Source: Amycolatopsis acidiphila (GTDB lineage: Bacteria; Actinomycetota; Actinomycetes; Mycobacteriales; Pseudonocardiaceae). From it: DNA of 64,000 nucleotides. A program made the position numbers and the translations under genes. Below are positions 29,600-44,890 of the stretch, piece after piece (position 1 is the stretch's first letter; every line of letters begins with the position of its first letter). The stretch is from positions 5,146,001 to 5,210,000 of the forward strand of contig NZ_CP090063.1 of the NCBI RefSeq assembly GCF_021391495.1. Direction: 5' to 3'. The notes under the pieces were generated by a model. It worked only from the letters and a program-made list of their open reading frames with translations, made no database searches and was not told the DNA's origin.

Positions 29600-30571
29600 T
29601 CAGCCGCGCTTCACCAACGGCAACTCGGGGCGCCGGGTGGACACGCCCGCCTTGTCCGCCAGCTCGCCGGACACGGTTCCGTAGGCGAAGAACTCGGCGA
29701 ACACGGGGTTGAACAGGTCCGGCCGGTCGGTCTGGCCCTGGTGCCCGCAGTCGTCGGGGTAGAAGAACTGGACGCCGGGCAGGTGGTCCTCCTGCACGTG
29801 ACCCCAGTCGACGGGGGTCAGGACGTCCTGGCGGCCGTAGAGGTAGATCCCGGGGATGTCGAGCCGGTCCAGACGGCCCTTCGTCGACAGCCTCGCGGCG
29901 CGGTTCTGGTCGGTCCACGGGGTGATGTGCCGGTACTGCAGCAACGTCGGCCAGAACCTGCGGTGGGCCTCCATTCGCGCGCAGGCCGAGAGGTACCGCA
30001 TCTCCACCAGGTCGTCGCTCACGGCCTCGGTGCGATGGACGATCGCCTCCATCATGGAGCGCATGCCCTCGCGGGTGCCGTCATAGGCGGTCAGGTGGAA
30101 CTGGCCCTTCGGCGGCTGGACGTCTTCGGGCACGAGGTCGCCGATGTCGCCGGCGACGAGCGCGAAGCTGAGCACCCGGTCGGGGTGCGCGACGGTGTAG
30201 TTGACCGTGTTCATGCACCCCATCGAGTTGCCCGCGAGGTGGAAACGATCCAGGCAGAGCGCGTCGGCGAAGGCGTGGATGAAGTCGACGAAGTCCTCCA
30301 TCCCGCGGGGCCAGTATTCGGGGCGGGTGTCGGACAGGCCGAACGCCGGCATATCGGGGCAGTAGACGCGAAAGCCCCGCGCGCCGAGGTAGGGCGCCAT
30401 GAACCGCCAGCCGGCCAGGCCCGAGGAGCCGGGCAAGCCCCCGTGCAGGAGGATCACCGCGGGCCCGGTGTCGCCGGACGTCATGTAGTGCGCGCGGGCG
30501 CCGTTGGCCAGCCGCACCCAGCGGCTCGCCATGCCCGGCACCTCGACGAGGTGCTCACTGGTCAGGGTCAT
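29600..30571 (-). CDS. Alpha/beta hydrolase, meta-cleavage product (C-C) hydrolase type
   Basis: The 323-residue protein has the oxyanion region LLHGGLPGSSG, the nucleophile elbow GNSMGC with the catalytic serine, an Asp in YLYGRQDVLTPVD, and the His in DDCGHQGQTDRP. The nearest familiar enzymes are MhpC/BphD/CmtE hydrolases that split vinylogous 1,5-diketones made by extradiol ring cleavage. In this cluster the natural substrate would be the decarboxylated ring-cleavage product, giving a carboxylic acid (isobutyrate if the substrate is cumate) and 2-hydroxypenta-2,4-dienoate. Its start overlaps the end of the amidohydrolase gene by 17 bases. Confidence 0.85.
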   Translation of the reverse strand: MTLTSEHLVEVPGMASRWVRLANGARAHYMTSGDTGPAVILLHGGLPGSSGLAGWRFMAPYLGARGFRVYCPDMPAFGLSDTRPEYWPRGMEDFVDFIHAFADALCLDRFHLAGNSMGCMNTVNYTVAHPDRVLSFALVAGDIGDLVPEDVQPPKGQFHLTAYDGTREGMRSMMEAIVHRTEAVSDDLVEMRYLSACARMEAHRRFWPTLLQYRHITPWTDQNRAARLSTKGRLDRLDIPGIYLYGRQDVLTPVDWGHVQEDHLPGVQFFYPDDCGHQGQTDRPDLFNPVFAEFFAYGTVSGELADKAGVSTRRPELPLVKRG

Positions 30572-31550
30572 GGATGTGCTCTCCTTCGTTCACGATCACG
30601 TCCGCCAGGCCCAGGAAGTCCAGGGCGTTGCGGGCCAGGAGGCCGGGTTCGGGCAGAGCCTCGGCCGACCTCATCGATCTGGTCATCTGGCCGGGGAAGA
30701 ACGGGGCGTCGCTGCCCAGCAGCAGCCGCTGCGCTCCGAACCGGTGGACGAGCAGCCGCAGGTGCTCGTCGTCGAACACCAGGGTGTCGGCGTAGAGGCG
30801 GCGCACGTGCCGGTCCGAGTCGGCGGGGTCGCGGTCACTCGTGAGACCGGCGGCGAGCCGCAGCCGCGGATAGGCCCACGGGAACGAGCCGCAACCGTGT
30901 GCCAACCCCACCCGGAGGCGCTCATACCGGTCCAGCACCCCCCCGAACACCAGCGCCGCCGCGGCGATCGCGGTGTCGGTCAGCATGCCGAGCCCGAGGT
31001 CGTACGGCGCGCCGGCCCGGCGCAGCACACCACGGCCGCCCTCGACGGGGTGCACGAACACCGCCGACCCGGTGGCGTCGCACGCCGCCCAGAAGTCGTT
31101 CAGCGCGGGCGCGTCGAGGTCCAGGTCGCTGACCCGCGTGCCGATCTCGACGCCGCGCAGCCCGATCCGCCGGCACCTCGCGAGCTCGGCGACCGCCGCG
31201 TCGACGTCATGCAGCGGCAGGCAACCGAGTCCGAGCAGCCGGCCGCCGGAGGACGCGCACGCCGCGGCGATCGAATCGTTCATCACCCGGGCGTAGGCCG
31301 AATCGGTCCCCGGCGCGCAAGCGTGCTCCATCGTGACCGGCACCGGTGACACGACCTGGTGTGAGATCCCGGCGCGGTCCATCTCCGCGAGGCGGAGCGG
31401 CACGTCCCACAGCATCGGCTGGACGCGCCGGAACACCTCGTCGCCGCGCAGGATCCGTCCGTGCTCGGCGTCGAGGCGGGGTGCGCCGGGGAAGTTCGCG
31501 TCGGTGCCGAGGTAGTGCGCGTGCACGTCGACCGCCGTGACTGGGGGCAT
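30555..31550 (-). CDS. Amidohydrolase-2 family protein, ACMSD-type decarboxylase candidate
   Basis: The 331-residue metal-dependent TIM-barrel protein has the HxH motif in VDVHAHYLG, a His in AVFVHPVEGGRG, another in VGLAHGCGSFPW, and the late Asp in LLLGSDAPFF. This is the amidohydrolase-2 subgroup containing aminocarboxymuconate-semialdehyde decarboxylase. By context it may remove CO2 from a carboxylated ring-cleavage product, the job of CmtD in p-cumate breakdown, which in Pseudomonas is done by a different protein family. ATG 31550 is used; GTG 31568 is the alternative, and neither has a clear ribosome site. Confidence 0.8.
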   Translation of the reverse strand: MPPVTAVDVHAHYLGTDANFPGAPRLDAEHGRILRGDEVFRRVQPMLWDVPLRLAEMDRAGISHQVVSPVPVTMEHACAPGTDSAYARVMNDSIAAACASSGGRLLGLGCLPLHDVDAAVAELARCRRIGLRGVEIGTRVSDLDLDAPALNDFWAACDATGSAVFVHPVEGGRGVLRRAGAPYDLGLGMLTDTAIAAAALVFGGVLDRYERLRVGLAHGCGSFPWAYPRLRLAAGLTSDRDPADSDRHVRRLYADTLVFDDEHLRLLVHRFGAQRLLLGSDAPFFPGQMTRSMRSAEALPEPGLLARNALDFLGLADVIVNEGEHIHDPDQ

Positions 31551-31591
31551 GGGCCGGACGTTAAACACCCGCGACGGACGGCGTGGCGGGA

Positions 31592-31610
31592 GTTTCAGTG
31601 GCCGGAACCG
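31592..31610. promoter_or_regulatory. IclR operator-like site 1 (GTTTCAGTGGCCGGAACCG)
   Basis: This 19-mer lies in the 155-base gap between the divergent amidohydrolase and IclR genes, 42-60 bases before the former. It matches the site at 33852-33870 at 16 of 19 positions, including GTTYCAG, GGCCGGAAC. Shared control by the adjacent IclR protein is inferred. Confidence 0.6.
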
Positions 31611-31635
31611 TGCACCTCCCGCGGTGGTGCCGAAT

Positions 31636-31670
31636 TAGACTCGGAGCGGTTCCAGCCAGGAGAACGGCTC
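31636..31670 (+). promoter_or_regulatory. IclR promoter -10 (TAGACT) and operator-like site 2
   Basis: TAGACT (31636-31641) is a good -10. Immediately downstream an inverted repeat GAGCGGTTC (31644-31652) and GAACGGCTC (31662-31670), eight of nine matched, covers the likely transcription start. Its half-site resembles those of sites 1 and 3. The position would allow autorepression, the usual habit of IclR proteins. Confidence 0.55.
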
Positions 31671-31705
31671 GTGCTCGCTGCCGAGCACGCACGAGGAGGT
31701 GCGCC

Positions 31706-32506
31706 GTGACCACGATGGAGCAGCAGGAGCCGTCCTCGCCCGGGTCGATTCTGTCCAAGGCGTTCGACGTACTCGGGGCGTTCGGCCCCGAGCTCCGGGT
31801 GCTGACGCTGACCGAGATCGCGCACAGCAGCGGGCTTCCGAAGTCCACCGTCCACCGGCTGCTCGGCAGGCTGACCGCGCTGGGTGTGCTCGAGCCGCAC
31901 GGCGCGGGGTTCAAGGTCGGGCTGCCGATGCGCCGCCTCGCCTCGGCGATGCCGATCGAAAGCCTGCGGCAGTCGGCGCTGCCCCACCTCGGGGCACTGC
32001 ACCACTGGTCACACCGCCACGTGCACCTCGGGGCACTGCGCGGCGCCCGGGTGGTGTTCGTGGAGCGGTTGATGGTGCCTGGTCACGATCTTCCTTCGGC
32101 CGCTCCCGGCACCGATCTGCCGGCGCACGCGACCGCGCTGGGCAAGGTGTTGCTGGCACACGTGCCTGAGGAAGAGGTCGAGGCCGCACTGGCCGAACCG
32201 ATGGCCGCGCTGGCGCCGAACACGATCATCGACCCAGCCGACTTCGCCGCCGAGCTGAGCCGGGTGCGCCGCAGCCAGGTCGCCACCGCGCGCGGCGAGT
32301 CACATCGGGACGTCACGTGCGTGGCCGCGCCGATCCTGATCCGCGGTCGCGCGGTGGGCGCGGTGTCGGTGTCCACCGCCGCCCGGGACGCGACGGTGGA
32401 CCGGGCGCTGCGGGACGCCGTGCGGGTCACGGCAGACCGGATCGCGCGCGACAACCGGAAAGTGCTCGCGCAGGGGCATGAGCACTGGTTCCCCGGAACG
32501 GTCTGA
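31706..32506 (+). CDS. IclR-family transcriptional regulator 1
   Basis: The 266-residue protein has an N-terminal winged helix (SILSKAFDVLGAF, LTLTEIAHSSGLPKSTVHRLLGRL) and a C-terminal IclR effector domain with LPAHATALGKVLLAHVPEEEVE and a late AVGAVSVST. The GTG at 31706 is preceded by GAGGAGG. It sits between the hydrolase/decarboxylase operon and the ring-cleavage gene; its stop touches that of the convergent LigB-type gene without a spacer. Operator-like palindromes in its own promoter and before the dioxygenase genes mark it as the pathway regulator, with an aromatic acid as plausible effector. Confidence 0.92.
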   Translation: MTTMEQQEPSSPGSILSKAFDVLGAFGPELRVLTLTEIAHSSGLPKSTVHRLLGRLTALGVLEPHGAGFKVGLPMRRLASAMPIESLRQSALPHLGALHHWSHRHVHLGALRGARVVFVERLMVPGHDLPSAAPGTDLPAHATALGKVLLAHVPEEEVEAALAEPMAALAPNTIIDPADFAAELSRVRRSQVATARGESHRDVTCVAAPILIRGRAVGAVSVSTAARDATVDRALRDAVRVTADRIARDNRKVLAQGHEHWFPGTV

Positions 32507-33568
32507 TCAGCGGTAGACCGCGAAAGGTTTGTTGGAGTTGAAGACGTCGGTGGCCACCAGCGTGGACCACCGGAGTTCCAGGCCGACTTCGCGCACCGCA
32601 CCGAAGAGGCAGAACCAGTTCAGGATTTCGTGCTGCCCGGCCTCGACGACCTGCCGGCCGGTGACCGCGGCCAGCTCGTCGTAGCGTTCCCCCGTCATCA
32701 GCCGGTAGAGCCGCTCGTCGGCATCGGTGTCCGGGCGGATGTGCCACAGTGCGTCGGTGAGGAAGGCGTGTGACCAGCTGGACGAGGCCACGAACGCGAC
32801 TCGCTGGTCGCGGTGGGCGAAGTGCCGGGCGATGGCCGCGCCCACCTCCATGCAGCGGGCCGGGCTGGGCCCGGAGGGGTCGGGCTTCTCGTCGGCGATG
32901 TCGGCGAACCGGGCGAGACCGCCCTTGCGGGCGATCGCGTGCTGCCCGTAGCAGTTCACGGTGACCGGCAGCAGCGGGTACGGGAACCGCGCCCCGGCGT
33001 GGTCGTAGTCCAGGAAGAGCTGCGTGTTGAGGATGGCGTGCGGGAAGTGCGCGCCCTCTCGTTTGCGGTAGGAGTAGGCCATGTCGACGCCGTCGTGGAC
33101 CAGACCGTCGGTCAGTTCCCGCGCCGTCGCCGCGTCGCCGCGGAGGGTGATGCGGAAGTCCTCCGGTAGCCCCCAGGCGTTGGGGCTGCCGCGCTCGTTC
33201 ATCACCTCGAAGGCCGGTACCTCGAGGTCGTCGTAGGCGAGCACGCAGAACGGCGGAACGACCTCCTCGCGGAAGTTCTCGTACTGGTCGTCGCCCCACA
33301 CGACGACGACGTCGGGAGCGAACTCGTCGAGTGCCTCGCGGCAGCGGGCGAGCCCGGCCAGCAGCTTCGCCCGGTGCCCGGCAGCAGCGGAACGGCCCTG
33401 GTCGTCCCCCCATTCCTCGCGCATGGTCGCGGGCCAGTGTGCGGGGTCCTTCTCGCGGTCGGGGATTCCGGGGTCGGCCAGGGTCCACCGCAGCAGGCCC
33501 GCCATGTGCTCGTCGGTGCCGGCGAGCAGCGGGTAGTGCGTCATCCCGATGCCGAGGAACTGGCTCAT
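32507..33568 (-). CDS. Class III (LigB-type) extradiol ring-cleavage dioxygenase
   Basis: The 353-residue protein begins MSQFLGIGMTHYPLLAG with an early His, continues with VVVWGDDQYENFREEVVPPF, and has a C-terminal FVASSSWSHAFLTDALWHI and EILNWFCLFGA. These fit the LigB/MhpB superfamily of non-haem Fe(II) enzymes that open catechols next to the hydroxyls. By context the substrate is a 2,3-dihydroxy aromatic acid. Known p-cumate pathways of Pseudomonas use an unrelated glyoxalase-fold enzyme here, so this would be a different solution. Its start overlaps the 81-residue gene by ATGA. Confidence 0.8.
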   Translation of the reverse strand: MSQFLGIGMTHYPLLAGTDEHMAGLLRWTLADPGIPDREKDPAHWPATMREEWGDDQGRSAAAGHRAKLLAGLARCREALDEFAPDVVVVWGDDQYENFREEVVPPFCVLAYDDLEVPAFEVMNERGSPNAWGLPEDFRITLRGDAATARELTDGLVHDGVDMAYSYRKREGAHFPHAILNTQLFLDYDHAGARFPYPLLPVTVNCYGQHAIARKGGLARFADIADEKPDPSGPSPARCMEVGAAIARHFAHRDQRVAFVASSSWSHAFLTDALWHIRPDTDADERLYRLMTGERYDELAAVTGRQVVEAGQHEILNWFCLFGAVREVGLELRWSTLVATDVFNSNKPFAVYR

Positions 33569-33810
33569 CGTCGTGCCTCTCCGTCGAGGGTGGTGGCGTG
33601 CGGGACGGGCATGACCACGACGCTGGCGGTACCGAGGTGGAGCCAGTTCACGCCGTCGTCGTCGGGTTCGTGCGGCAGGACCTCGACGGTCGTGAACGGA
33701 ACCCCGTGGGGGTCGTGGGTGCCCACGATGATGTTCACGTCGCACCCGACGGCGCGGACGTGCAGGATCTTGTCCGGGCCGTCGGTGCCCTGGTGGTCGA
33801 CGATTCGCAT
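33565..33810 (-). CDS. Small conserved-looking hypothetical protein (81 aa) in the aromatic cluster
   Basis: The product starts MRIVDHQGTDGPDKILHVRA and contains VNIIVGTHDPHGVPFTTVEV. It has no signal or membrane segment and no cysteines beyond one. I do not recognise a family. Its stop overlaps the start of the extradiol dioxygenase gene, so the two are translated together; a role as accessory subunit or stability partner is possible. It is transcribed divergently from the ring-hydroxylating dioxygenase under the shared palindrome at 33846-33874. Confidence 0.6.
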   Translation of the reverse strand: MRIVDHQGTDGPDKILHVRAVGCDVNIIVGTHDPHGVPFTTVEVLPHEPDDDGVNWLHLGTASVVVMPVPHATTLDGEARR

Positions 33811-33845
33811 CGCCGGACGGTAACCGCGCCGGAAAGCCCGCCGCG

Positions 33846-33874
33846 GCAGCGGTTCCAGCGGCCGGAACGGCTGC
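33846..33874. promoter_or_regulatory. IclR operator-like site 3 upstream of the ring-hydroxylating dioxygenase
   Basis: GCAGCGGTTCC (33846-33856) and GGAACGGCTGC (33864-33874) form an 11-bp inverted repeat with one mismatch and a 7-base centre. It lies just above the expected -35 of the dioxygenase promoter (-10 at 33897) and 36 bases from the divergent 81-residue gene. An activator position is suggested. Confidence 0.65.
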
Positions 33875-33896
33875 CCACGGCGCCGGAACCGCTTCC

Positions 33897-33902
33897 TAGC
33901 CT
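33897..33902 (+). promoter_or_regulatory. -10 element (TAGCCT) of the dioxygenase operon, leaderless
   Basis: TAGCCT ends eight bases before the ATG at 33911, with no Shine-Dalgarno sequence, as in leaderless actinobacterial transcripts. The -35 is poor, in keeping with activator dependence. Confidence 0.5.
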
Positions 33903-33910
33903 CGTCACTC

Positions 33911-35227
33911 ATGCCTGAGCCCTTCGTCATCGACAACCGGGAAGACTCGCTCTTCCAGGTCCACCGCGAGGTGTTCACCTCGCCCGAGATCTTCGAGCGG
34001 GAGCGCGAGCTGATCTTCGGTCCGGCCTGGCTGTATGCCGGGCACGAGTCGGAACTGCCCCGCCGCAACGACTTCCGCACGCGAGACGTCGGCGGCCGTC
34101 CGGTCATCTTCACGCGTGACCGGCACGGAGAGGTGCGCGTGCTGCTCAACACCTGCCTGCACCGCGGCGCGTCGCTGTGCCGCCACCCGGCGGGCAACGC
34201 CAAGATCTTCACCTGCTTCTACCACGGGTGGGCTTACCGCAACTCGGGTGAACTCGTGAACGTGCCCTCGGTCGAGGACTACGCCGGCGCCCCGACCGAC
34301 GTCTACCGCACCCTGCCCGCGCCGCGGGTGGAGTCGTACCGCGGCTTCTACTTCGTCAACTTCTCCGGCGACGCACCGGATCTGCGGACGTGGCTGGGGA
34401 CTTCGGCCTACCTGCTGGACCTGGCCGTGGACCAGTCCGAGGACGGCATCGAGATCCTGCCCGGTACGCACAGCTACACGCTGCAGGCCAACTGGAAGCT
34501 GCTGGTCGAGAACAGCGTGGACGGCTACCACGCGAAGTCTGTGCACCACACCTACTTCGAGATGATGATGGAGCTGGGCCAGACGCCGCCGATGCTGGGC
34601 GACTCGGACACCAACGGGGTGCCGCCGGCGGGCCTGGGCACGGAGTTCGGCAACGGTCACGCGACGCTGATGTACCCGGGCAACGGGCTGCCACTGGCGA
34701 ACGAAGCAGTCACCCACAACCTGGCGGCCCTACGCTCGCGCGCGGTGGAGCGGTTCGGCGAGTCCTACGCGACCGCCGTGTTCGATTTGGCCCGCAACAC
34801 CATCTTCTTCCCGAACTTCGTGCTCATCGACCTGAACTTCGGGATGATCCTGCGCACGATCACGCCGCTGGGCCCGGACCGCACCCAGGTGTCGAGCTGG
34901 CAGCTCACGCCACGCGGTCTGGACGAGGAGTCGTTGCGGTACCGGATCGACAACGCGCTGACCTTCTGGGGCCCGGCCGGCCTGGCGACCCCGGACGACG
35001 TCGAAGCGCTGGAGCAGGCACAGCGTGGGTTCGGCGCGCGGCGGGAGATGCCGTGGTCGGACATCTCCAAGGGCATGGGCAAGGCCCGGCCCGCGGCCAA
35101 CGACGAGTTGCAGATGCGCGCGTGGTGGCGGCAGTGGAATGCCGTGATGACCGGTGAACCGCTGCCGCGCGAGGTCGAGGAGTTCATCCCCTTCGACGTG
35201 CCCGTCCAGCAACCCCAGGGAGCCTGA
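33911..35227 (+). CDS. Ring-hydroxylating dioxygenase, large (alpha) subunit
   Basis: The 438-residue catalytic subunit has a Rieske [2Fe-2S] centre (CLH at 82-84, CFYH at 102-105) and the mononuclear iron site (NSVDGYHAKSVHH, Asp204, His207, His212). Length and layout suit aromatic-acid dioxygenases of the cumate/benzoate/biphenyl superfamily. With the beta subunit, ferredoxin and reductase that follow, it would insert O2 into an aromatic ring to give a cis-dihydrodiol. Substrate assignment to p-cumate is from context. It starts the five-gene operon 33911-38035. Confidence 0.93.
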   Translation: MPEPFVIDNREDSLFQVHREVFTSPEIFERERELIFGPAWLYAGHESELPRRNDFRTRDVGGRPVIFTRDRHGEVRVLLNTCLHRGASLCRHPAGNAKIFTCFYHGWAYRNSGELVNVPSVEDYAGAPTDVYRTLPAPRVESYRGFYFVNFSGDAPDLRTWLGTSAYLLDLAVDQSEDGIEILPGTHSYTLQANWKLLVENSVDGYHAKSVHHTYFEMMMELGQTPPMLGDSDTNGVPPAGLGTEFGNGHATLMYPGNGLPLANEAVTHNLAALRSRAVERFGESYATAVFDLARNTIFFPNFVLIDLNFGMILRTITPLGPDRTQVSSWQLTPRGLDEESLRYRIDNALTFWGPAGLATPDDVEALEQAQRGFGARREMPWSDISKGMGKARPAANDELQMRAWWRQWNAVMTGEPLPREVEEFIPFDVPVQQPQGA

Positions 35228-35228
35228 C

Positions 35229-35702
35229 ATGACCACGTCCACCCGCACCGAGATCGAGGACTTCCTCTACCTGGAGGCATCTCTGCTCGACGAGTGGCGC
35301 CTGGAGGAATGGGTGGAGCTGTTCACCCTCGACTGCACCTACGAGGTGCCGGCCACCGACGCACCGGAGGCCGATCCGGCCCTGAGCTGGTCACTGATCC
35401 ACGACCGGCGCACGATGCTGGAACAGCGCGTCATCCGGCTGAAGAAACCCGAGGCGCACGCCGAGTTCCCGCACTCGCGGACCAGCCGCATCATCGGCAA
35501 CGTCCGGATCCTGGAGCAGCGCGAGGACTCGCTGGAGGTGTCGGCGAGTTTCCTGGTGTCCCGCATGAAGGCAGGCAAGTTCGACCAGTACGCGGGCCAC
35601 TACTTCTACGAACTGGTGCCCGGGCTGAAGATCCGGCGGAAGAAGGCCGTGCTCGCGCACGACTGCCTGGACCCGCAGGGGAAGATCTCGTTCGTCCTGT
35701 GA
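35229..35702 (+). CDS. Ring-hydroxylating dioxygenase, small (beta) subunit
   Basis: The 157-residue SnoaL-fold protein has EIEDFLYLEASLLDEWRLEEWVELFTLDCTYEV at the start and SRTSRIIGNVRIL in the middle, both typical of beta subunits that build the alpha3beta3 hexamer. It carries no metal centre. It begins one base after the alpha stop, so translation is coupled. Confidence 0.93.
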   Translation: MTTSTRTEIEDFLYLEASLLDEWRLEEWVELFTLDCTYEVPATDAPEADPALSWSLIHDRRTMLEQRVIRLKKPEAHAEFPHSRTSRIIGNVRILEQREDSLEVSASFLVSRMKAGKFDQYAGHYFYELVPGLKIRRKKAVLAHDCLDPQGKISFVL

Positions 35703-35713
35703 AAGGGAACGCC

Positions 35714-36043
35714 ATGAACCATGTACCGCAACGGATTCCGGCCTGCGCGGTCGAGGACCTCGACGACGGGGACACGATGACGGTCGACGGGAACGGCGAG
35801 GCGATCGCGGTCCACCGCGTGGACGGCGAGTTCTACGCGACCTCCGACACGTGCACGCACGAGAGGTGGTCGCTGGGCGAAGAAGGTGACCTCGACGGGT
35901 TCGAGATCACCTGCACGCTCCACAACGCCCGCTTCGACGTACGCGACGGGAAGGCGCTGTGCTTCCCCGCGGTGGTCAACCTGCGCAGCTACGCCACGGT
36001 CGTCGAGGACGGCAAGGTCTACGTGCTGACCGGGGAGGCGTGA
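35714..36043 (+). CDS. Rieske-type [2Fe-2S] ferredoxin of the dioxygenase
   Basis: The 109-residue protein has the Rieske ligands in DTCTHERWSLGEEGDLDGFEITCTLHNARF-type spacing (CTH, then CTLH). It carries electrons from the reductase to the alpha subunit. AAGGGAAC precedes the ATG, 11 bases after the beta subunit. Confidence 0.94.
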   Translation: MNHVPQRIPACAVEDLDDGDTMTVDGNGEAIAVHRVDGEFYATSDTCTHERWSLGEEGDLDGFEITCTLHNARFDVRDGKALCFPAVVNLRSYATVVEDGKVYVLTGEA

Positions 36044-36817: not shown

Positions 36818-38035
36818 ATGACCGCCGGACATCCGGTGCGTTCGGTCACCGTGGCCGGGGGCGGCCTCGCCGGCTTCACCGTCGCGCGGGAACTGCGGGC
36901 GAACGGCTTCGAGGGAACCGTCCGGATCGTCGATCCGGAGGGCGTTCCCTACGACCGGCCGCCGCTGAGCAAGGGCTACCTCGCCGGTGCCGTCACCGCC
37001 GAGGCCATCCGGCTCGCGCCGGAGCAGTGGTATGCCGACAACGCCGTGGAAGTGATCGAGGACAGCGTCGCGAAGTTGTCCCCCGGCTCCGGAACTGTGC
37101 TGCTGGCCCACGGCGGCGAGATCGCTTCCGACGCGGTGGTCCTCGCGACGGGCGGCACAGCCCGGCGGTTGCCGGGCGCCTGCTCCGTCCCGGTGCTGCG
37201 CGACCGGGCCGACGCCGACAGTCTGCGGGCCCACCTCCGGCCCGGAGCACGGCTCGTGATCGTGGGGGCCGGGCTGATCGGCGCCGAGGTCGCTTCGACC
37301 GCGTCGGCGGCCGGGGTGGCGGTCACGCTGGTGGACCCCGTGCCGGTTCCCCTGGTCCCCGCACTGGGACCCGAGATCGCCGAGGTGCTGCACCGCATGC
37401 ACGAGGAGCGAGGTGTCCGCGTCGTGCGCGGGAAACCGGTGCGCAGCACCATCCGCTCGGTGGAGGTCGAACGGGCACACGGGACGTTCCTGACGCTGGA
37501 GGCCGACGTCGTGCTGGCCGCGATCGGCCTCGATGTGGACACCACACTCGCCGCCTCCGCCGGATTGCCGGTCGCCGGCGGTGTGGTGGTCGGACCGGAC
37601 GGCAGGACGAGCAATCCGGCCGTCTACGCGGCCGGCGACCTCGCGCGCACCCGCCTGCCCGACGGCACCCTGGTGCGACGAGGCGAGCATTGGGAGTCCG
37701 CGCTGCACGACGGCACCGCGGTCGCGCGATCCCTGCTCGGGCTCCCGCTGCCGGAGCGGCCGCCGGCGTGGTTCTGGTCGGACCGCTACGGGGTGCACGT
37801 CGAGGCCACGGGCTCCATGGCCGCTCCCGGTTCGACCGTCCTGCGCGGGGAACACCTGGCCTTCCGCCTCGACGAGGACAGCCGCCTGGTGGGATGCGCC
37901 GCGATCGACGAGGGCAAGGCGCTGCGTGCCGCCCGGAGACTCATCGCCGGTGGCGCGATCGTGAGCGCTCGTGACCTGGCGGACCCCGCTGTCGACCTGA
38001 GAAGGCTCGCGATCCGCTCGCTGCCACCCCCATGA
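36818..38035 (+). CDS. FAD-dependent ferredoxin reductase of the dioxygenase
   Basis: The 405-residue protein has two Rossmann motifs (VAGGGLAGFTVARELR near 14; VIVGAGLIGAEVAS near 148), the Rhodococcus/BphA4-type PYDRPPLSKGYLAG, and VYAAGDLAR before a FWSDRYGVHVEATG C-terminal domain. It passes electrons from NADH to the Rieske ferredoxin. It closes the dioxygenase operon; a strong inverted repeat follows. Confidence 0.93.
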   Translation: MTAGHPVRSVTVAGGGLAGFTVARELRANGFEGTVRIVDPEGVPYDRPPLSKGYLAGAVTAEAIRLAPEQWYADNAVEVIEDSVAKLSPGSGTVLLAHGGEIASDAVVLATGGTARRLPGACSVPVLRDRADADSLRAHLRPGARLVIVGAGLIGAEVASTASAAGVAVTLVDPVPVPLVPALGPEIAEVLHRMHEERGVRVVRGKPVRSTIRSVEVERAHGTFLTLEADVVLAAIGLDVDTTLAASAGLPVAGGVVVGPDGRTSNPAVYAAGDLARTRLPDGTLVRRGEHWESALHDGTAVARSLLGLPLPERPPAWFWSDRYGVHVEATGSMAAPGSTVLRGEHLAFRLDEDSRLVGCAAIDEGKALRAARRLIAGGAIVSARDLADPAVDLRRLAIRSLPPP

Positions 38036-38037
38036 GT

Positions 38038-38160: not shown

Positions 38161-39306
38161 GTGAACACTGGTGTTCCGTCCGGTCCCGTCCGCGTGACCC
38201 TCGAACCGGCCGACGAGCTGGTGCGCCGGATACGGGAGATCCTGCGCGCGGTGGCGGCGCTGACCGGCGAACCGGACCTCGCCACGCACGCGGCGACCCG
38301 CGACCTGGTGTCCGCCGAGGCGGCCCTGCGCGCCGCCGAACACGTGGTCGTCCGGGAGCTGGCGGCCGGCAGCAGCAAGGACGCGGCCCGGCTCGCCGCG
38401 CTGCTGGCGCAGGTCGGTGGTGCGCTGGCGGCGGTCCGGGACAGCAGGCTCGCCGTGCGCACCGCCGCCATGGCCGACCTGCACCACTGCCTGGCCCGGC
38501 TGCGGGCCGCGAACACCCTGCAGGAGCTCGCCCAGCAGGTGCCGGCCGAGCTGCACCGCCTCGGGTACCGGCGCGCGTTGTTCTCCCGCCTGTCGGGCCC
38601 GACGTGGAGCCCACGCTCGGCTTACGCCTACGCCGACCCACAGCTCGCCGAGGACCTGGTGCGCATCGGGACGGCCGTGCCCGGCCAGATCGGCCGCGAG
38701 CTGCCGGAGACCGAGGTGGTACGCACCCGGGCCCCGGTGCTGGTCGAGGACGCCCAGCACAATCCGCGCGTGCACCACCGGCTGATCAACCTGGCCCGCA
38801 CGCTGGACTACGTGGTCGCCCCGCTCGTCGGCCGCGGCGAGGTGGTCGGCCTCGTGCACGCCGACCAGCACGTCGAGCACGACCACGTCGACGAGTTCGA
38901 CCTGCGGCTGCTCGGGCTGTTCGCCGAGGGGCTGGGCTGCGTGTTCGAGCGGGTCGTGTTCTCCGAGCAGCTGGGACTGATGCGGGAACGCATGCGGGAG
39001 CAGGCACGCGTGGTCGACGACCTGCTCGACGGATATCCCCCCGCGCCCACGCGTCAGCCGGAGCCACCCCGGCAGGCCGACCCCCTCGGCCGCTACGAAG
39101 GCCCCTTCGCCGAACTCACCCGCCGCGAGCTGGACGTCTTGCGGCACCTGGTGCTCGGCGAGAGCAACAGCCAGATCGCCGCCGCGCTGTTCGTCGCGCC
39201 CGGCACCGTGAAGACGCACGTCAAGAACGTGCTGCGCAAGCTCGGCGTCGCCAACCGCGCTGAGGCGACGGCGCGCTACCACGAGCTGATGCAGCGGCAC
39301 CGGTAG
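38161..39306 (+). CDS. GAF-LuxR transcriptional regulator
   Basis: The 381-residue protein has a helical N-terminus (to about 115), a GAF-like sensor domain (about 118-265, with LDYVVAPLVGRGEVVGLVHAD), a proline-rich linker, and a C-terminal LuxR helix-turn-helix (LTRRELDVLRHLVLGESNSQIAAAL, VAPGTVKTHVKNVLRKLGV). There is no receiver domain, so it probably responds to a small ligand directly. GAGGAG precedes the GTG at 38161. It sits between the dioxygenase and P450 operons and is the natural candidate to control the latter. Confidence 0.88.
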   Translation: MNTGVPSGPVRVTLEPADELVRRIREILRAVAALTGEPDLATHAATRDLVSAEAALRAAEHVVVRELAAGSSKDAARLAALLAQVGGALAAVRDSRLAVRTAAMADLHHCLARLRAANTLQELAQQVPAELHRLGYRRALFSRLSGPTWSPRSAYAYADPQLAEDLVRIGTAVPGQIGRELPETEVVRTRAPVLVEDAQHNPRVHHRLINLARTLDYVVAPLVGRGEVVGLVHADQHVEHDHVDEFDLRLLGLFAEGLGCVFERVVFSEQLGLMRERMREQARVVDDLLDGYPPAPTRQPEPPRQADPLGRYEGPFAELTRRELDVLRHLVLGESNSQIAAALFVAPGTVKTHVKNVLRKLGVANRAEATARYHELMQRHR

Positions 39307-39335
39307 ACCACACCCGGCGGCGGCCGGGAGAGATC

Positions 39336-39401
39336 CGGGGAGAGAAATCTCTTCCTCCGGGGTGATGCACGACACGTCGTGTTGGCCCAAAGATTGGACC
39401 A
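39336..39401 (+). promoter_or_regulatory. Control region of the P450 operon
   Basis: The 132-base gap before the P450 gene holds AGAGAaaTCTCT (39341-39352), the inverted repeat CACGACACGTCGTG (39368-39381) and two direct repeats TTGGCCCA (39382-39389) and TTGGACCA (39394-39401) spaced 12 bases. The first resembles the repeat before the GAF-LuxR gene. Which of these is functional is unknown. Confidence 0.4.
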
Positions 39402-39438
39402 GAACGCGCAATGACGCCGTCATCCCGGAGGGAACTTC

Positions 39439-40764
39439 ATGACCACCACGCCCGAGCTGTCCACCCGCCCGATCCCGGACGAGATCGCCCGCCAGGTCGT
39501 GCTGCCGGAGGGCCACCGCCACGACGGGCCGCTGTTCGACGCCTACCGGTGGCTGCGGGAGAACAACCCCCTCGGCAAGGCCGAGGTCGAGGGCTACGAC
39601 CCGGTCTGGCTGGTGACCAAGCACGCCGACATCATGGAGATCGAGCGCCAGCCGCACGTGTTCACCAGCGGCGGTGGCGACAGGCCCGGCTCGCACAACC
39701 CGATCCTGCAGAACCAGGCCGGCGACGCCTTCACCAAGCAGCTCACCGGCGGCAGTCTGCGGATCCTGGACACGCTGACCTACCTGGACCCGCCCGAGCA
39801 CACCGAGATCAAGGACATCGCCAACGACTGGTTCCGTCCCGCGAACCTCAAGAAGTGGGAGGACACGATCCGGGCGCTGGCGAAGGAGGCGATCGCCAAG
39901 TACCTGCGTAGCGGGACCAACGACATCGACTTCGTCCAGCAGTTCGCGCTCTACTACCCGCTGCACGTGATCATGAGCCTGTTCGGCGTCCCGGAGTCCG
40001 ACGAGCCCCGCATGATGACGTTGACGCAGGAGTTCTTCGGCACCGCAGACCCGGACGCCCAGCGCGCGGACGTCGAGCCACTGACCCCGGAGGCCGCGGC
40101 ACAGCAGTGGTCGGCCGCGATCCAGGACTTCTACGCCTACTTCGACAAGCTGGTCGAGGACCGGCGCGCGAACCCGCGCGACGACCTGGCGACGATCATC
40201 GCGCAGGCCAAGGACTCGAATGGCGAGTACTACCGCAAGGAGTTCGCCTACGGCTGGTTCATCGCGATCGCGACCGCGGGCCACGACACCACCTCCAGCA
40301 CGATGGCAGGCACCATCGAGGCACTGGCCCAGTTCCCCGACCAGCTCGCGAAGGTGCGGGAGAACCCCGCGCTGATCCCGGACCTGGTCAACGAGGGCCT
40401 GCGGTGGGTCTCGCCGGTCAAGCAGTTCACCCGCCAGGCCACGCAGGACTACGTGCTGCGCGGGCAGCAGATCCGCACGGGCGACCGGTTCATGCTGCTG
40501 TACCAGTCGGCCAACCGGGACACCGACGTGTTCGACGAGCCGGACACCTTCCGGCTGGACCGCAAGCCCAACAAGCACATCGCGTTCGGCTACGGGCCGC
40601 ACATGTGCATCGGCCAGCACCTGGCCAAGCTCGAACTGCGGATCATGTTCGAGGAGCTGCTGCCGCTGATCGAGAGCGTCCAGGTGACCGGCGAGCGCAA
40701 GTCGGTGATGACCAACTTCGTCGGCGGGCTCAGGAAGCTGCCCGTGCGCCTGGAGCTGAAGTGA
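39439..40764 (+). CDS. Cytochrome P450, CYP108-like (P450terp/p-cymene hydroxylase type)
   Basis: The 441-residue soluble P450 has the I-helix AGHDTTSS (about 280-288), the E-x-x-R in NEGLRWVSP, and the haem loop [10 protein letters not shown] with Cys near 390. Several stretches recall CYP108A1 (P450terp) as I remember it: [40 protein letters not shown] and the C-terminal TNFVGG. CYP108 enzymes hydroxylate terpenoid or alkyl-aromatic methyl groups. GGAGGGAACTTC precedes the ATG. It overlaps its reductase gene (GTGA), starting a P450-reductase-ferredoxin-ADH-ALDH operon like the terp operon. Confidence 0.9.
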
Positions 40765-41969
40765 CCCGCGTGCTGGTCGTCGGCGCCGGTCACGCCGGCG
40801 CCACCCTGGCCGGCCTGCTGCGGCAGGCCGGCCACCGGGGCCCGGTCGAGCTCTTCGGCGACGAGGTGGACCTGCCCTACCACCGGCCGCCGCTGTCGAA
40901 GAAGTTCGCCGAAGGCGATCTGGAGCAGTGGCTGCGGCCGGCGGAGTTCTACCGCGAGCAGGACATCACGGTCCGGCTGGGCGAGCACGTCGTGGGGATC
41001 GACCGGGACGGCCGCCGCGTGCGCACCGGCTCTGGCGACTTCCACAGCTACGACCACCTCGTCCTGGCGACCGGAGCCGAACCCCGGGCGCTGCCGGTGC
41101 CCGGGGCGGAGCTCTCGGGTGTCGTGTCGCTGCGGACCCTGTCTGACGCCCGGATCCTGCGCAAGTGCGTCGAAGAACGGCGCGCTCTGGTCATCGTCGG
41201 CGGCGGCTACATCGGACTCGAGGTCGCCGCCGTCGCGCGGTCCTGCGGTGTCGCCGTCACCGTCGTCGAACGCGAGGAGCGCGTGCTCGGCCGCGTCGCG
41301 AGCGCCCGGCTGTCGGAGATACTGGCCGCCCACCACCGGGAGCAAGGCACGCACATCCTCAACGGGGCCGAGGTCACCCGGATCGACGGCGCCGACGGGC
41401 GGGTGCGGGCAGTGGTGCTCGAGGACGGGACGCAGATCCCGTGCGAGGCGGTACTGATCGGCGTCGGAGCCGTGCCCCGCGACCGGCTCGCCGTGGACGC
41501 GGGACTGGTGTGCGCGCAGGGTATCGTCGTCGACGAGCACGCCCGCACCAGTGACCCGCGCATCCTCGCGATCGGCGACGTCACCCGGCGGCCGCTGGGC
41601 ACCGGCGCGCTGGTGCGCCTGGAAAGCATCCCGAGCGCGACCGAGCAGGCCAAGCAGGCCGTCGCCACCATCACCGGAGCGGCACCGGTCGCGGCCGAGG
41701 TGCCCTGGTTCTGGTCCGACCAGTTCGACCTCAAGCTCAAGATCGCCGGCCTGGTCCCGCCCACGCCGCACACGGTCGTGCGCGGAGACCCCGCGGCCGG
41801 CCGGTTCGCCCTGTTCCACCACCACGGCGGCACGATCACCGCCGTCGAATCGGCAAACTCCCCCGCCGAGTTCATGGCGGGCAAGAAGTTCATCGCGTCA
41901 CGCACACGGATCGACCCGGCCCGCCTCGCCGACAGCTCGGTCCCGCTGCGCGACGCCGTCGTCCACTAG
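40761..41969 (+). CDS. FAD-dependent ferredoxin reductase of the P450 system
   Basis: The 402-residue protein has [46 protein letters not shown] and [10 protein letters not shown] followed by [14 protein letters not shown]. It resembles putidaredoxin/terpredoxin reductase and would feed electrons from NADH to the [2Fe-2S] ferredoxin next door. The GTG start overlaps the P450 stop. It is distinct in sequence from the dioxygenase reductase at 36818. Confidence 0.93.
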
Positions 41970-41979
41970 GAGCACCACC

Positions 41980-42297
41980 ATGCCCAAGGTCACCTACGAG
42001 CTGCCCGACGGGGCCTCCCACGCCCTCGACGTCCCCAGTGGACAGAGCGTCATGGACGGTTCGGTCCGCAACAACCTGCCCGGCATCGTCGCCGAATGCG
42101 GGGGCAGCTGCTCGTGCGCCACCTGCCATGTGTTCGTCGAGGAGGGTGCGTCGTGCTTCGACGAGCCAACCGATGAGGAGCGCGATCTCCTTGAATACGC
42201 CGAGGGCGTGCGGCCGAACTCGCGCCTGTCCTGCCAGTTGATCCTCACCGAGGACTGCCAGGGCGTGCGCGTCACGGTCCCCGACACCAACGGTTGA
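41980..42297 (+). CDS. [2Fe-2S] ferredoxin (terpredoxin/adrenodoxin type)
   Basis: The 105-residue ferredoxin has the cluster ligands in AECGGSCSCATCHVF (C-x5-C-x2-C pattern) with a fourth Cys in SRLSCQLI. It belongs to the putidaredoxin/terpredoxin/cymredoxin group serving class I bacterial P450s. TAGGAGCACCACC leads into the ATG, 10 bases after the reductase. Confidence 0.94.
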   Translation: MPKVTYELPDGASHALDVPSGQSVMDGSVRNNLPGIVAECGGSCSCATCHVFVEEGASCFDEPTDEERDLLEYAEGVRPNSRLSCQLILTEDCQGVRVTVPDTNG

Positions 42298-42326
42298 CCC
42301 CTCTCCCACTGGACAAAGGAGTCCGC

Positions 42327-43439
42327 ATGGACATCACCGCCGCGGTCGCCACCGAAATCGGTGGCACCTTCGAGCTGCACCAGCTCACCCTGGCCGATCC
42401 CGCACCCGACGAAGTCGTGGTCGAGATCGCCGGGGTCGGCCTGTGCCACACCGACCTCGCCGCCAAGGACGGCCACCTGCCCTTCCCGCTGCCCGGTGTC
42501 TTCGGGCACGAGGGCAGCGGCGTCGTCACCGCGGTGGGCAGCGCCGTCACCAAGGTCGCAGTGGGCGACAAGGTCGTGCTCAGCTTCGACAGCTGTGGCC
42601 GCTGCCGCGAATGCCGCAACAACGAGCCCGCCTACTGCCACGACTTCATGGCCTACAACTTCGGCGGCGCCCGCCAGGACGGCACCAGCCCACTGACCCG
42701 CGACGGCGAACCAGTCGGCTCGGCGTTCTTCGGCCAGTCCTCCTTCGCCACCCACGCGCTGGCGCGGGAACGCAACGTGGTGAAGGTGCCCGACGACGCG
42801 CCGCTGGCCGTGCTGGGCCCGCTCGGCTGCGGGGTGCAGACGGGCGCCGGCGCGGTGCTGAACTCGCTGGACTGCCAACCGGGGTCGTCGTTGCTCGTGC
42901 TGGGCGGCGGTTCGGTCGGGCTGTCGGCGGTCCTGGCCGGTGTGGTGCGGGAACTGAGCCGGATCATCGTCGTCGAGCCGCACCCCGCGCGGCGGGACCT
43001 CGCCCTGTCACTGGGTGCCACCGACGTGGTCGATCCGGCGGCCGGGCCGCTGCCCGAGCAGGTGCGCTCCATCGTTCCCGACGGCGCGGACCACGCGATC
43101 GACACGACCGGGATCGCCGCCGTCCTGCAGGACGCCATGTCCGCACTCGCCCACCGCGCCAAGGTGGGCATCATCGGTGTCCCGTCCGATCCCGAGGCCG
43201 CGCTGGTCCTGAACCTCATTCAGGCGCAGGTGCTGGGTGTGCGGGTGATGGGCATCGTCGAGGGCGACAGCGACCCCGACGTGTTCGTGCCCGAACTGCT
43301 GGAACTGCACCGCACCGGACGGTTCCCGTTCGACAAGCTCGTCACCACCATGCCGTTCTCCCAGATCAACGAAGCCGTCGCCGCCCAGCACCGGGGCGAC
43401 GCGGTCAAGATCGTGCTCGTGCCCGAGGAGTCCCGATGA
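42327..43439 (+). CDS. Zinc-dependent (aryl) alcohol dehydrogenase
   Basis: The 370-residue medium-chain dehydrogenase has catalytic zinc ligands (GLCHTDLAA with Cys near 40, GHEGSG), the four-cysteine structural zinc loop CGRCRECRNNEPAYC, and the cofactor motif VLGGGSVGLSAV. It resembles benzyl/aryl alcohol dehydrogenases. In the operon it would oxidise the alcohol made by the P450 (for example cumic alcohol) to the aldehyde. ATG 42327 is used because AAAGGAG precedes it. Confidence 0.92.
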   Translation: MDITAAVATEIGGTFELHQLTLADPAPDEVVVEIAGVGLCHTDLAAKDGHLPFPLPGVFGHEGSGVVTAVGSAVTKVAVGDKVVLSFDSCGRCRECRNNEPAYCHDFMAYNFGGARQDGTSPLTRDGEPVGSAFFGQSSFATHALARERNVVKVPDDAPLAVLGPLGCGVQTGAGAVLNSLDCQPGSSLLVLGGGSVGLSAVLAGVVRELSRIIVVEPHPARRDLALSLGATDVVDPAAGPLPEQVRSIVPDGADHAIDTTGIAAVLQDAMSALAHRAKVGIIGVPSDPEAALVLNLIQAQVLGVRVMGIVEGDSDPDVFVPELLELHRTGRFPFDKLVTTMPFSQINEAVAAQHRGDAVKIVLVPEESR

Positions 43440-44890
43440 CCATCGACTACGACCGGCTCTACCTGGCCGGGCAGTGGACCGAACCCGCCACCGAACACCG
43501 CATCGACGTGCATTCGGCGAGCACCGAGGAGTTGCTCGGCGCCGTCCCCGAGGCCGCCGAGGCGGACGTCGACGACGCGGTCGCCGCCGCACGCCGAGCC
43601 TTCGACGACCCGGCCGGCTGGTCCCGCTGGGAGCCGCACCAGCGCGCCGACGTCCTCGAACGGTTCGCCGTGGCACTGGAAAAGCGCGCCCAGGAAACCG
43701 CGCGGCGGGTCACCGTCCAGAACGGGATGCCGATCTCGCTGGCACAGCAGTTCGAGGGCGGCTTCCCGCCGGTGCTGTTGCGGTACTTCAGCGAGCTGGT
43801 CACCTGCTCGCCGCAGGAGGAGACCAGGCCGGGCATGCTCGGGGGCAGCTCGCGGGTGATCCGCGAACCGGTCGGCGTGGTCGCCGCGGTCGTGCCGTGG
43901 AACGTTCCCCAGGCGATCACCTTCCTCAAACTGGCCCCGGCGCTGGCCGCGGGGTGCACGGTGGTGCTCAAACCCGCCCCGGAGACGGTCCTCGACGCGA
44001 TGCTGATGGCGGAGGCCGCCGCCGAAGCCGAACTGCCCGCGGGCGTGCTCAGCGTCGTCCCGGGTGGCCGCGAACTGGGCGCCTACCTCATCGCGCATCC
44101 CGGAGTGGACAAGGTGTCGTTCACCGGCTCCACGGCGGCGGGACGGGCCATCGCGGAGACCTGCGGCCGACTGCTGCGGCCGGTGACGCTGGAGCTGGGC
44201 GGGAAGTCGGCCGCGATCGTCCTCGATGACGCGAACCTGTCGGAGACCATCGAGAGCTTCTTCGCCGCCACGCTGCTGAACAACGGCCAGATCTGCTGGC
44301 TGGGCACCCGGGTGCTGGCTCCGCGGTCCCGTTACGGCGAGGTCGTGGACGCCGTCACCGACCTGGCCCGCTCGCTCGCCATCGGTGACCCGCTCGCCGA
44401 GACCACCCAGGTCGGCCCGCTGGTGTCGGCGCGCCAACGCGACCGGGTGGAGTCCTACATCGCCAAGGGACGCGGTGAGGGCGCGCGAGTCACGACCGGC
44501 GGCGGCCGGCCGGCCGGACTCGACCGCGGCTGGTTCGTCGAACCCACGGTGTTCGCCGACGTCGACAACCAGCACACGATCGCGCAGGAGGAGATCTTCG
44601 GTCCGGTGCTGTCGGTGATCCCCTACGGCGACGAGGACGAGGCGGTCGCGATCGCCAACGCCAGCGAGTACGGGCTCGGTGGCAGCGTGTGGACGGCTGA
44701 CCCCGACCGCGGCGAGTCCGTGGCGCGCCGGGTGGAATCGGGAACGATCGGTGTCAACGCCTACGCCAACGACCCCACCGCGCCGTTCGGCGGCATCAAG
44801 TCCAGCGGCATCGGCCGCGAGCTGGGACCCGAGGGCCTGCACTCCTACCAGGTGTTCAAGACCATCTACCTGGACCCCAGCAAGGGGTAG
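43436..44890 (+). CDS. NAD(P)+-dependent aldehyde dehydrogenase
   Basis: The 484-residue ALDH has PWNVPQAITFLKLAPALAAG, FTGSTAAGRAI (cofactor), VTLELGGKSA with the general-base Glu, and GQICWLGTR with the catalytic Cys near 287, then EEIFGPVLSVIPY. It would convert the ADH product to the carboxylic acid. The ATG overlaps the ADH stop (ATGA). It ends the operon, followed by a perfect hairpin at 44966-45000. Confidence 0.94.
   Translation: MTIDYDRLYLAGQWTEPATEHRIDVHSASTEELLGAVPEAAEADVDDAVAAARRAFDDPAGWSRWEPHQRADVLERFAVALEKRAQETARRVTVQNGMPISLAQQFEGGFPPVLLRYFSELVTCSPQEETRPGMLGGSSRVIREPVGVVAAVVPWNVPQAITFLKLAPALAAGCTVVLKPAPETVLDAMLMAEAAAEAELPAGVLSVVPGGRELGAYLIAHPGVDKVSFTGSTAAGRAIAETCGRLLRPVTLELGGKSAAIVLDDANLSETIESFFAATLLNNGQICWLGTRVLAPRSRYGEVVDAVTDLARSLAIGDPLAETTQVGPLVSARQRDRVESYIAKGRGEGARVTTGGGRPAGLDRGWFVEPTVFADVDNQHTIAQEEIFGPVLSVIPYGDEDEAVAIANASEYGLGGSVWTADPDRGESVARRVESGTIGVNAYANDPTAPFGGIKSSGIGRELGPEGLHSYQVFKTIYLDPSKG

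What the first reader, a model, noticed from the sequence alone, without database searches (positions are those of the whole stretch)
29600..44890. Candidate p-cymene to p-cumate degradation cluster in an actinobacterium, built on a CYP108-like P450
The sequence shows a P450-reductase-ferredoxin-ADH-ALDH operon (39439-44890) in the gene set of the Pseudomonas alpha-terpineol (terp) operon, beside a complete ring-hydroxylating dioxygenase operon, an extradiol dioxygenase, a decarboxylase-type amidohydrolase and a C-C hydrolase. From memory, CYP108 enzymes include P450terp and a Rhodococcus p-cymene hydroxylase with its own ferredoxin. The combined chemistry (methyl to carboxyl, ring dihydroxylation, meta-cleavage, decarboxylation, hydrolysis) matches p-cymene/p-cumate breakdown step by step, replacing the non-haem CymA monooxygenase with a P450. 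The lower pathway for 2-hydroxypenta-2,4-dienoate is not in the window.
Basis: partly seen in the sequence, partly recalled or inferred. Interest (0 to 1): 0.78.

Follow-up and report, generated by a model that had tools for sequence, protein, structure and literature searches.

The report
Actinobacterial p-cymene and p-cumate cluster
A soil-type actinobacterium carries neighbouring genes that very likely turn the plant oil p-cymene into p-cumate with a P450 enzyme and then break the ring open, using different enzyme families from the well-known Pseudomonas pathway for several of the same steps.

Summary
The best-supported reading is two adjacent units. (1) A ring module (four-component dioxygenase, dihydrodiol dehydrogenase, LigB-type extradiol dioxygenase, ACMSD-like decarboxylase, C-C hydrolase) whose chemistry fits p-cumate or a near p-alkylbenzoate; it appears to be an IclR regulon with a dyad operator, GTTCC-N7-GGAAC. 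(2) A LuxR-P450-reductase-ferredoxin-ADH-ALDH operon; its P450 is CYP108-like, 69% identical to P450tol and 47% to P450terp.

The P450 occurs in 34 of 50 genomes holding this extradiol gene, against 6 of 348 in an order-level sample, and on the same contig in at least 20 of the 34. But the operon also stands without the ring module in three genomes, so it is portable, with its own promoter.

P450-initiated p-cymene oxidation (CYP108N12) and p-cumate breakdown in Rhodococcus T104 are published. Less expected are non-orthologous replacements at three steps, the operator, and an unnamed 81-aa protein that tracks this dioxygenase clade. The alkyl group is inferred, not shown.

The parts
29600..30571 (-). 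alpha/beta hydrolase, proposed C-C (HOMODA-type) hydrolase
   Evidence: PF00561; best PDB match 2-hydroxy-6-oxo-7-methylocta-2,4-dienoate hydrolase 2d0d, E 3.3e-24
30555..31568 (-). ACMSD-like amidohydrolase, proposed decarboxylase of the ring-cleavage product
   Evidence: PF04909; human ACMSD 2wm1, E 2.8e-44; the aligned His, His, Asp and an Arg are kept; their roles are recalled, or by analogy with NbaD as described
31592..31608 (.). operator-like dyad, 1 mismatch, in the divergent amidohydrolase/IclR promoter
31649..31665 (.). operator-like dyad, 1 mismatch (GTTCCAGCCAGGAGAAC), same promoter
31706..32506 (+). IclR-family regulator (PcaR/PobR-like)
   Evidence: PF01614 + PF09339; TIGR02431 119 bits, under its cut-off of 284.75
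32507..33568 (-). LigB-superfamily extradiol dioxygenase, proposed 2,3-dihydroxy-p-cumate 3,4-dioxygenase
33565..33810 (-). 81-aa conserved protein of unknown family, 4-bp overlap with the extradiol gene
   Evidence: 33 relatives besides itself, none with a Pfam domain or a functional name; in 9 of 9 loci with the close alpha clade, 0 of the 79 other profiled loci; start chosen by alignment
33852..33868 (.). exact operator dyad GTTCCAGCGGCCGGAAC in the divergent oxygenase/extradiol promoter
33911..35227 (+). ring-hydroxylating oxygenase alpha subunit
   Evidence: PF00355 + PF00848; four relatives at 69-85% named p-cumate dioxygenase
35229..35702 (+). oxygenase beta subunit
   Evidence: PF00866
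35714..36043 (+). Rieske ferredoxin of the oxygenase
   Evidence: PF00355
36043..36798 (+). SDR, proposed cis-dihydrodiol dehydrogenase
   Evidence: best NCBIfam NF009463, BenD-type, 168 bits, under its cut-off of 322
36818..38035 (+). ferredoxin reductase of the oxygenase
   Evidence: HcaD-like, 260 bits, under its cut-off of 450
38161..39306 (+). GAF-LuxR regulator that travels with the P450 operon
   Evidence: PF00196 + GAF; 44-85% identical genes directly before the P450 in G138, G282, G087, G314
39439..40764 (+). CYP108-like cytochrome P450
   Evidence: 69% to P450tol, 47% to P450terp; 9 of 11 P450tol pocket residues kept
40761..41969 (+). FAD ferredoxin reductase of the P450
   Evidence: PF07992 + PF14759
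41980..42297 (+). [2Fe-2S] ferredoxin, putidaredoxin/terpredoxin type
   Evidence: 3hui E 2.8e-25, terpredoxin 1b9r E 6.4e-19
42327..43439 (+). zinc-type alcohol dehydrogenase
   Evidence: PF08240 + PF00107
43436..44890 (+). aldehyde dehydrogenase
   Evidence: PF00171

Best explanation
Two neighbouring regulatory units make one pathway from p-cymene (or a close 4-alkyltoluene) to central metabolites. Unit 1: the P450, fed by its reductase and ferredoxin, hydroxylates the ring methyl group; ADH and ALDH take the alcohol to p-cumate. Unit 2: the four-component dioxygenase adds O2 at C2-C3, the SDR restores the ring, the LigB-type enzyme cuts between C3 and C4, the ACMSD-like enzyme removes the carboxylate of the cleavage product, and the alpha/beta hydrolase splits it into a short branched acid (isobutyrate) and 2-hydroxypenta-2,4-dienoate. 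The latter would be finished by hydratase, aldehyde dehydrogenase and aldolase genes elsewhere in the genome. An IclR protein controls unit 2 through GTTCC-N7-GGAAC; a GAF-LuxR protein controls unit 1. Shown here: gene content, family and fold, conservation, linkage, operator pattern. Inferred: substrate, order of steps, pairing of regulators with sites.
For: P450tol, the closest P450 of known activity found, hydroxylates the methyl of toluenes (passages) and 9 of 11 pocket residues are the same. Linkage: P450 in 34 of 50 extradiol-holding genomes versus 6 of 348 in an order-level sample; at least 20 of the 34 on one contig, 19 of those within 50 kb. Rhodococcus pseudokoreensis carries the same kind of ring module with a membrane monooxygenase and reductase and no P450 match in the 41-kb stretch, as expected if methyl oxidation is the shared need. 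An OpaD-type metal hydrolase has been shown to decarboxylate the unsubstituted analogue (passages). A hydrolase without a hydroxymuconic-semialdehyde dehydrogenase is the layout noted for the EB200 p-cumate operon (passages). Sister clusters of the FCD type carry an acyl-CoA synthetase closest to MbcS, under its cut-off. Operator: exact sites in 29 of 32 loci of the IclR kind versus 4 of 56 others.
Against: The P450 operon occurs without the ring module in G138, G282 and G087 at 83-95% P450 identity, and a fourth genome, G230 (64%), has the P450 and partner genes rearranged and no extradiol gene, so its substrate may be a non-aromatic terpene. In the order-level sample only 2 of 6 extradiol-holders have the P450, one being the window's genome. 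No operator-like site lies before the P450 operon. 16 of the 50 extradiol-holding genomes lack the P450 at the threshold used. One extradiol relative (P0191, 68%) bears another source name, 2,3-dihydroxyphenylpropionate 1,2-dioxygenase. No characterised actinobacterial CmtAb or CmtC sequence was available to compare. A second, partly overlapping module exists in the same genome.
Confidence: 0.68

Rival explanations
1. The P450 operon is an independent terpene C7-oxidation unit (alpha-terpineol, limonene or similar, as in the terp operon) that only sits beside a p-cumate module; its acid product goes to CoA-dependent breakdown.
For: LuxR-P450-reductase-ferredoxin-ADH-ALDH stands in three genomes without the extradiol gene, near acyl-CoA dehydrogenase-like genes. 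It has its own regulator and its own conserved promoter element. CYP108N12 and CYP108N14 also hydroxylate limonene, and N14 terpineol (passages).
Against: Co-occurrence and linkage with the ring module, with three kinds of module.
Confidence: 0.2
2. The pathway serves p-xylene/p-toluate, 4-ethyltoluene or mixed 4-alkyltoluenes; isopropyl is not the main group. (Overlaps with the best explanation except for the alkyl group.)
For: P450tol was described with toluenes; CYP108N12 also takes p-xylene; the p-cumate pathway of Pseudomonas EB200 is needed for other p-alkylated benzoates too.
Against: MbcS-like ligase in FCD-type clusters points to a branched acid, weakly; R. opacus C1 uses p-cymene.
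Confidence: 0.2
3. The ring module degrades 2,3-dihydroxybenzoate or o-phthalate, as in opa/dhb clusters.
For: The same step order with an ACMSD-like decarboxylase is known for opa (passages).
Against: No second aldehyde dehydrogenase matched the window besides the one in the P450 operon (tautomerase and oxalocrotonate decarboxylase were not sought there). The Streptomyces locus of the class II aldolase kind has an aldehyde dehydrogenase, a tautomerase and 4-oxalocrotonate decarboxylase, and the Sphingobium one a hydroxymuconic-semialdehyde dehydrogenase.
Confidence: 0.05

Closest known systems
cym/cmt pathway of Pseudomonas putida F1 and Burkholderia xenovorans LB400
   Same: Same proposed reaction order; four-component oxygenase, SDR, hydrolase.
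   Different: Methyl oxidation by P450 instead of CymAaAb; LigB-type instead of type I (VOC) ring cleavage (type I stated in PMC4250580, passage); amidohydrolase of 337 aa instead of CmtD of 244 aa (length; class II aldolase is stated for DhbB, and for CmtD recalled); IclR instead of TetR-type CymR.
p-cumate operons of Rhodococcus sp. T104 (Bae et al. 2007, not held; known from passages of PMC5224996)
   Same: Actinobacterial p-cumate use, IclR-type regulators.
   Different: T104 is reported not to use p-cymene. Its enzyme families could not be compared here and may be the same.
CYP108N12 of Rhodococcus globerulus with cymredoxin (Giang et al. 2022, 2023, not held; passages of PMC11889516 and PMC11279926)
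   Same: CYP108-family P450 starting p-cymene breakdown.
   Different: No sequence at hand; whether it is linked to a ring module is unknown to me.
P450tol of Rhodococcus coprophilus TC-2 (7V40)
   Same: 69% identity, 9 of 11 pocket residues.
   Different: Residues A112 and P114 are both Thr here.
opa cluster of Pseudomonas PTH10 (PMC6362003, passages)
   Same: ACMSD-like decarboxylase after a 3,4-extradiol cut.
   Different: Type I extradiol enzyme; unsubstituted substrate.

Membership tests
CYP108 | at least about 40% identity to P450terp, CYP108A1 (rule and name recalled) | tested here: met
   197 of 420 aligned residues = 47%
CYP108 | oxidises a terpene or arene methyl group | not testable with these tools
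   needs an enzyme assay
terp-type operon | P450, reductase, [2Fe-2S] ferredoxin, ADH, ALDH together (gene set recalled) | tested here: met
proteobacterial cym/cmt pathway | CymA-type non-haem methyl monooxygenase | tested here: not met
   a P450 stands in its place
proteobacterial cym/cmt pathway | four-component ring-hydroxylating oxygenase and SDR | tested here: met
proteobacterial cym/cmt pathway | type I (VOC) extradiol dioxygenase | tested here: not met
   PF02900 and LigB fold
proteobacterial cym/cmt pathway | class II aldolase-type decarboxylase (DhbB stated, CmtD recalled) | tested here: not met
   PF04909 amidohydrolase instead; no class II aldolase reference matched the window
proteobacterial cym/cmt pathway | HOMODA-type hydrolase | tested here: met
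   by family and best match only; substrate not tested
LigB superfamily | LigB fold and conserved metal-site His/His/Glu plus catalytic His (positions recalled) | tested here: met
ACMSD-like decarboxylases | amidohydrolase family with the metal-site residues | tested here: met
   the N-terminal HxH is read from the sequence, outside the aligned stretch
benzoate 1,2-dioxygenase (TIGR03229) | score over the equivalog cut-off | tested here: not met
   268.6 against 780.95 bits
p-cumate 2,3-dioxygenase alpha | groups with a characterised CmtAb | tested here: inconclusive
   no characterised sequence at hand; only source names, 44 of the 120 listed matches

The most novel reading that the evidence does not exclude
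Actinobacteria hold a whole p-cymene/p-cumate route assembled largely independently of the Pseudomonas one, with different enzyme families at methyl hydroxylation, ring cleavage and decarboxylation, a distinct IclR operator, and an unrecognised 81-aa protein that is a working component of the dioxygenase or ring-cleavage step.
Probability: 0.35. Interest if true: 0.6.

Novelty: new variant of a known kind. Interest (0 to 1): 0.45.

Why it matters
It gives a testable map from sequence to p-cymene use in many actinobacteria (loci in Frankia, Nocardia, Mycobacterium, Pseudonocardia and others), a candidate operator for a p-cumate-responsive IclR regulator (a possible expression tool for high-GC hosts), a likely home pathway for the biocatalyst P450tol, and one unexplained conserved protein.

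Tried and rejected
A first P450 tree had rows read on the wrong strand and was discarded; one search replaces it. The idea that the P450 operon belongs to the IclR regulon was tested and not supported.

Limits of the counts. The order-level survey is a sample of 348 genomes in which only the best 4-5 candidates per genome were scored; the extradiol gene (E 1e-110) is in 6, the P450 (E 1e-160) in 6, both in 2, one of these the window's genome. The co-occurrence test used 50 of the 79 extradiol loci because of a cap; many of the 29 left out were lower-ranked or on short contigs, so 34 of 50 may be too high. The two samples differ in taxonomy and some of the 50 genomes are near-duplicates (L038/L039, L040/L041), so the Fisher p is not to be read literally. 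Of the 34, 20 share a contig (18 by equal contig length, 1 because the P450 lies inside the locus, 1 because its partner genes do), 3 more fit by coordinates only, 8 lie on other contigs and 3 are undecided. Within the +-10 kb held, only 5 of the 79 genome loci show the P450 at 55% or more. Of 88 profiled loci, 55 hold all six core genes and 28 the three lower-pathway genes; 17 lack an amidohydrolase match, in part through contig ends.

Not in print, as far as searched: searches listed no paper whose title or shown abstract describes this combination; I read passages of nine papers only, and subscription papers are not held.
Full report
OBSERVATION. The window lies at 5.146-5.210 Mb of a single 8.18-Mb contig. 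G314, told to be of the same family as the window's genome, has a contig of the same length, 38,657 bp, as the one named Saccharopolyspora sp. HNM0986, with an 84% extradiol match in both, so the host is probably a pseudonocardial actinobacterium (inference).

TWO UNITS. Unit 2 (ring module) has three gene groups: amidohydrolase-hydrolase (-), small gene-extradiol gene (-, 4-bp overlap) and alpha-beta-Rieske ferredoxin-SDR-reductase (+), with an IclR gene (+) between the first two. Unit 1 is LuxR, P450, reductase, ferredoxin, ADH, ALDH (+). The boundary is visible in evolution: unit 1 stands in G138, G282 and G087 with 83-95% P450 identity, genomes in which the extradiol gene was not found at E 1e-110. 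A fourth such genome, G230 (64%), has the parts rearranged.

THE P450. It is 69% identical to P450tol (304 of 438) and 47% to P450terp (197 of 420); 9 of the 11 residues named as lining the toluene pocket of P450tol (PMC11219674, passages) are the same, A112 and P114 being Thr. In the corrected tree of 38 rows the window groups with G138 and rows from Amycolatopsis and Streptomyces genomes, and P450tol is sister to a Nocardia alni P450 whose gene lies 6.5 kb from the extradiol gene. So P450tol may itself come from such a pathway (inference). The genome has two further CYP108-like P450s at 57% and 53%, one in another P450 operon at 5.41 Mb and one near a second ring module at 1.77-1.79 Mb.

THE RING MODULE ELSEWHERE. 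A scan with the extradiol family gave 79 loci (505 candidates encoded a relative, the best 80 were kept). With the window and 8 plasmid loci 88 were profiled by tblastn. Of these, 55 hold extradiol, amidohydrolase, alpha, beta, SDR and hydrolase genes together, and 28 also show hydratase, acetaldehyde dehydrogenase and aldolase (count over all 88). Some misses are contig ends or flank limits. Four of 88 (L014 Streptomyces, L015 Sphingobium, L026, L087) match a class II aldolase; the first two were the references. The published record, as passages, assigns 2,3-dihydroxy-p-cumate cleavage to type I enzymes (PMC4250580), a class II aldolase to the decarboxylation in Pseudomonas reinekei MT1, and an ACMSD-like hydrolase to the same step in PTH10 (PMC6362003). 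The window thus joins the LigB type with the ACMSD type.

LINKAGE OF THE UNITS. P450 at E 1e-160 or better: 34 of 50 genomes holding the extradiol gene, 6 of 348 in an order sample, 4 of the 342 there without the extradiol gene and 2 of the 6 with it, one being the window's own. Fisher p for 34/50 against 4/342 is 3e-32, with the sampling caveats under Tried and rejected. At least 20 of the 34 lie on one contig, 6.5-61 kb apart, median 19 kb. The link is seen with all three kinds of module: close alpha clade with IclR (L018, L020, L023), FCD regulator (L022, L027, L040), and IclR with FAD monooxygenase (L071). Rhodococcus pseudokoreensis has instead an FA_desaturase-family membrane protein of 377 aa, annotated alkane 1-monooxygenase, with a Fer2/NAD reductase, the kind expected of CymA/XylM/AlkB (recalled).

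REGULATION. Comparing the divergent promoters of six close loci gave the dyad GTTCC-N7-GGAAC in 6 of 6. In the window it is exact at 33852 and one mismatch off at 31592 and 31649, all in the two divergent promoters of the ring module. Up to one mismatch there are 6 sites in 64 kb, 2.26 expected, and 3 of 100 shuffles reach 6, so the count alone is weak; the position is what tells: 3 in those 237 bp has Poisson p about 1e-7 (chosen after the motif was seen). Exact sites occur in 29 of 32 loci of the IclR kind (31 with a matched IclR gene, plus L017, whose contig ends before it) and in 4 of 56 others. Loci are related, so that p-value is not to be read literally. In the whole genome there are 23 exact sites (reversed control pattern: 1), five of them within 16.5 kb at 7.762-7.778 Mb, around another IclR gene and a hydratase-acetaldehyde dehydrogenase-aldolase operon: the best candidate for the missing lower pathway. 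The dehydrogenase and aldolase pass their NCBIfam cut-offs; the hydratase does not (269.7 against 408.8). A further dehydrogenase-aldolase pair lies at 3.055-3.057 Mb. No such site lies at the P450 operon, whose own promoter has AGRAATCTC in 5 of 5 genomes compared (window, G138, G282, G087, G314) and GGGGTGATGCA in 4 of 5, not G087.

THE SMALL PROTEIN. 33565-33810 codes for 81 residues. 33 relatives besides itself were found in a database of 5.8 billion proteins, none with a Pfam domain or a functional name; no Pfam match at E 1 for three members. An HMM finds it in 10 of 102 sources: the nine loci with the close alpha clade and L123, which is the G314 copy of the L018 contig. In the three Rhodococcus loci (L023, L024, L064) it sits with the oxygenase genes rather than the extradiol gene. 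The model (pLDDT 79) is a small beta sheet without a convincing match. One relative, P0257, is named as a Rhodococcus opacus plasmid gene on a contig of 1,727,788 bp; R. opacus C1, which grows on p-cymene, has a plasmid of that length (PMC11881993, passages). I did not see that plasmid's other genes.

WHAT REMAINS OPEN. The alkyl group, the true order of events, and whether the P450 operon is induced with the ring module. Papers seen: PMC5224996, PMC11219674, PMC11889516, PMC11279926, PMC6362003, PMC4097962, PMC4250580, PMC11881993 and PMC12442788, all as passages found by term; Bae 2007, Eaton 1996 and Giang 2022 were not held and are known only through those passages.

Noticed in passing
window's own genome, G000:C1:1771235-1788181 (loci L113, L114): A second ring module with another oxygenase type, an AMP-ligase, an IclR gene (72%) and a P450 (52%). 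No amidohydrolase reference matched in 1.758-1.797 Mb, and the aldolase matches lie in three frames.
   Followed up: partly
G000:C1:7783966-7785353 (L117): Partial extradiol and alpha-subunit matches beside a hydrolase match, near the lower-pathway genes; look like remnants of a further module. The stretch fetched ends at 7785900.
   Followed up: no
L014:16097-17494: Streptomyces NBC_01454: TetR regulator domain fused to a class II aldolase next to the extradiol gene.
   Followed up: no
L012:16884-26311: Rhodococcus pseudokoreensis ring module with a membrane monooxygenase and reductase where others have the P450.
   Followed up: partly
L010, L060-L080, L085: 18 of 88 loci have an IclR gene and a match to an FAD monooxygenase, in many Nocardioides, Nocardia and Gordonia loci beside the amidohydrolase, perhaps a different entry to the same ring cleavage.
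   Followed up: no
window 27466-29507: Acyl-CoA dehydrogenase and 3-hydroxybutyryl-CoA dehydrogenase genes next to the hydrolase on the same strand; they could handle the released acid, unproven.
   Followed up: no
window 49947-52172: A second IclR regulator divergent from an MFS transporter; no operator-like dyad was found there.
   Followed up: partly
window 50918-57004: Sulfatase, FAD-dependent glycerophosphate-oxidase-like and FGGY-kinase matches in a row.
   Followed up: no
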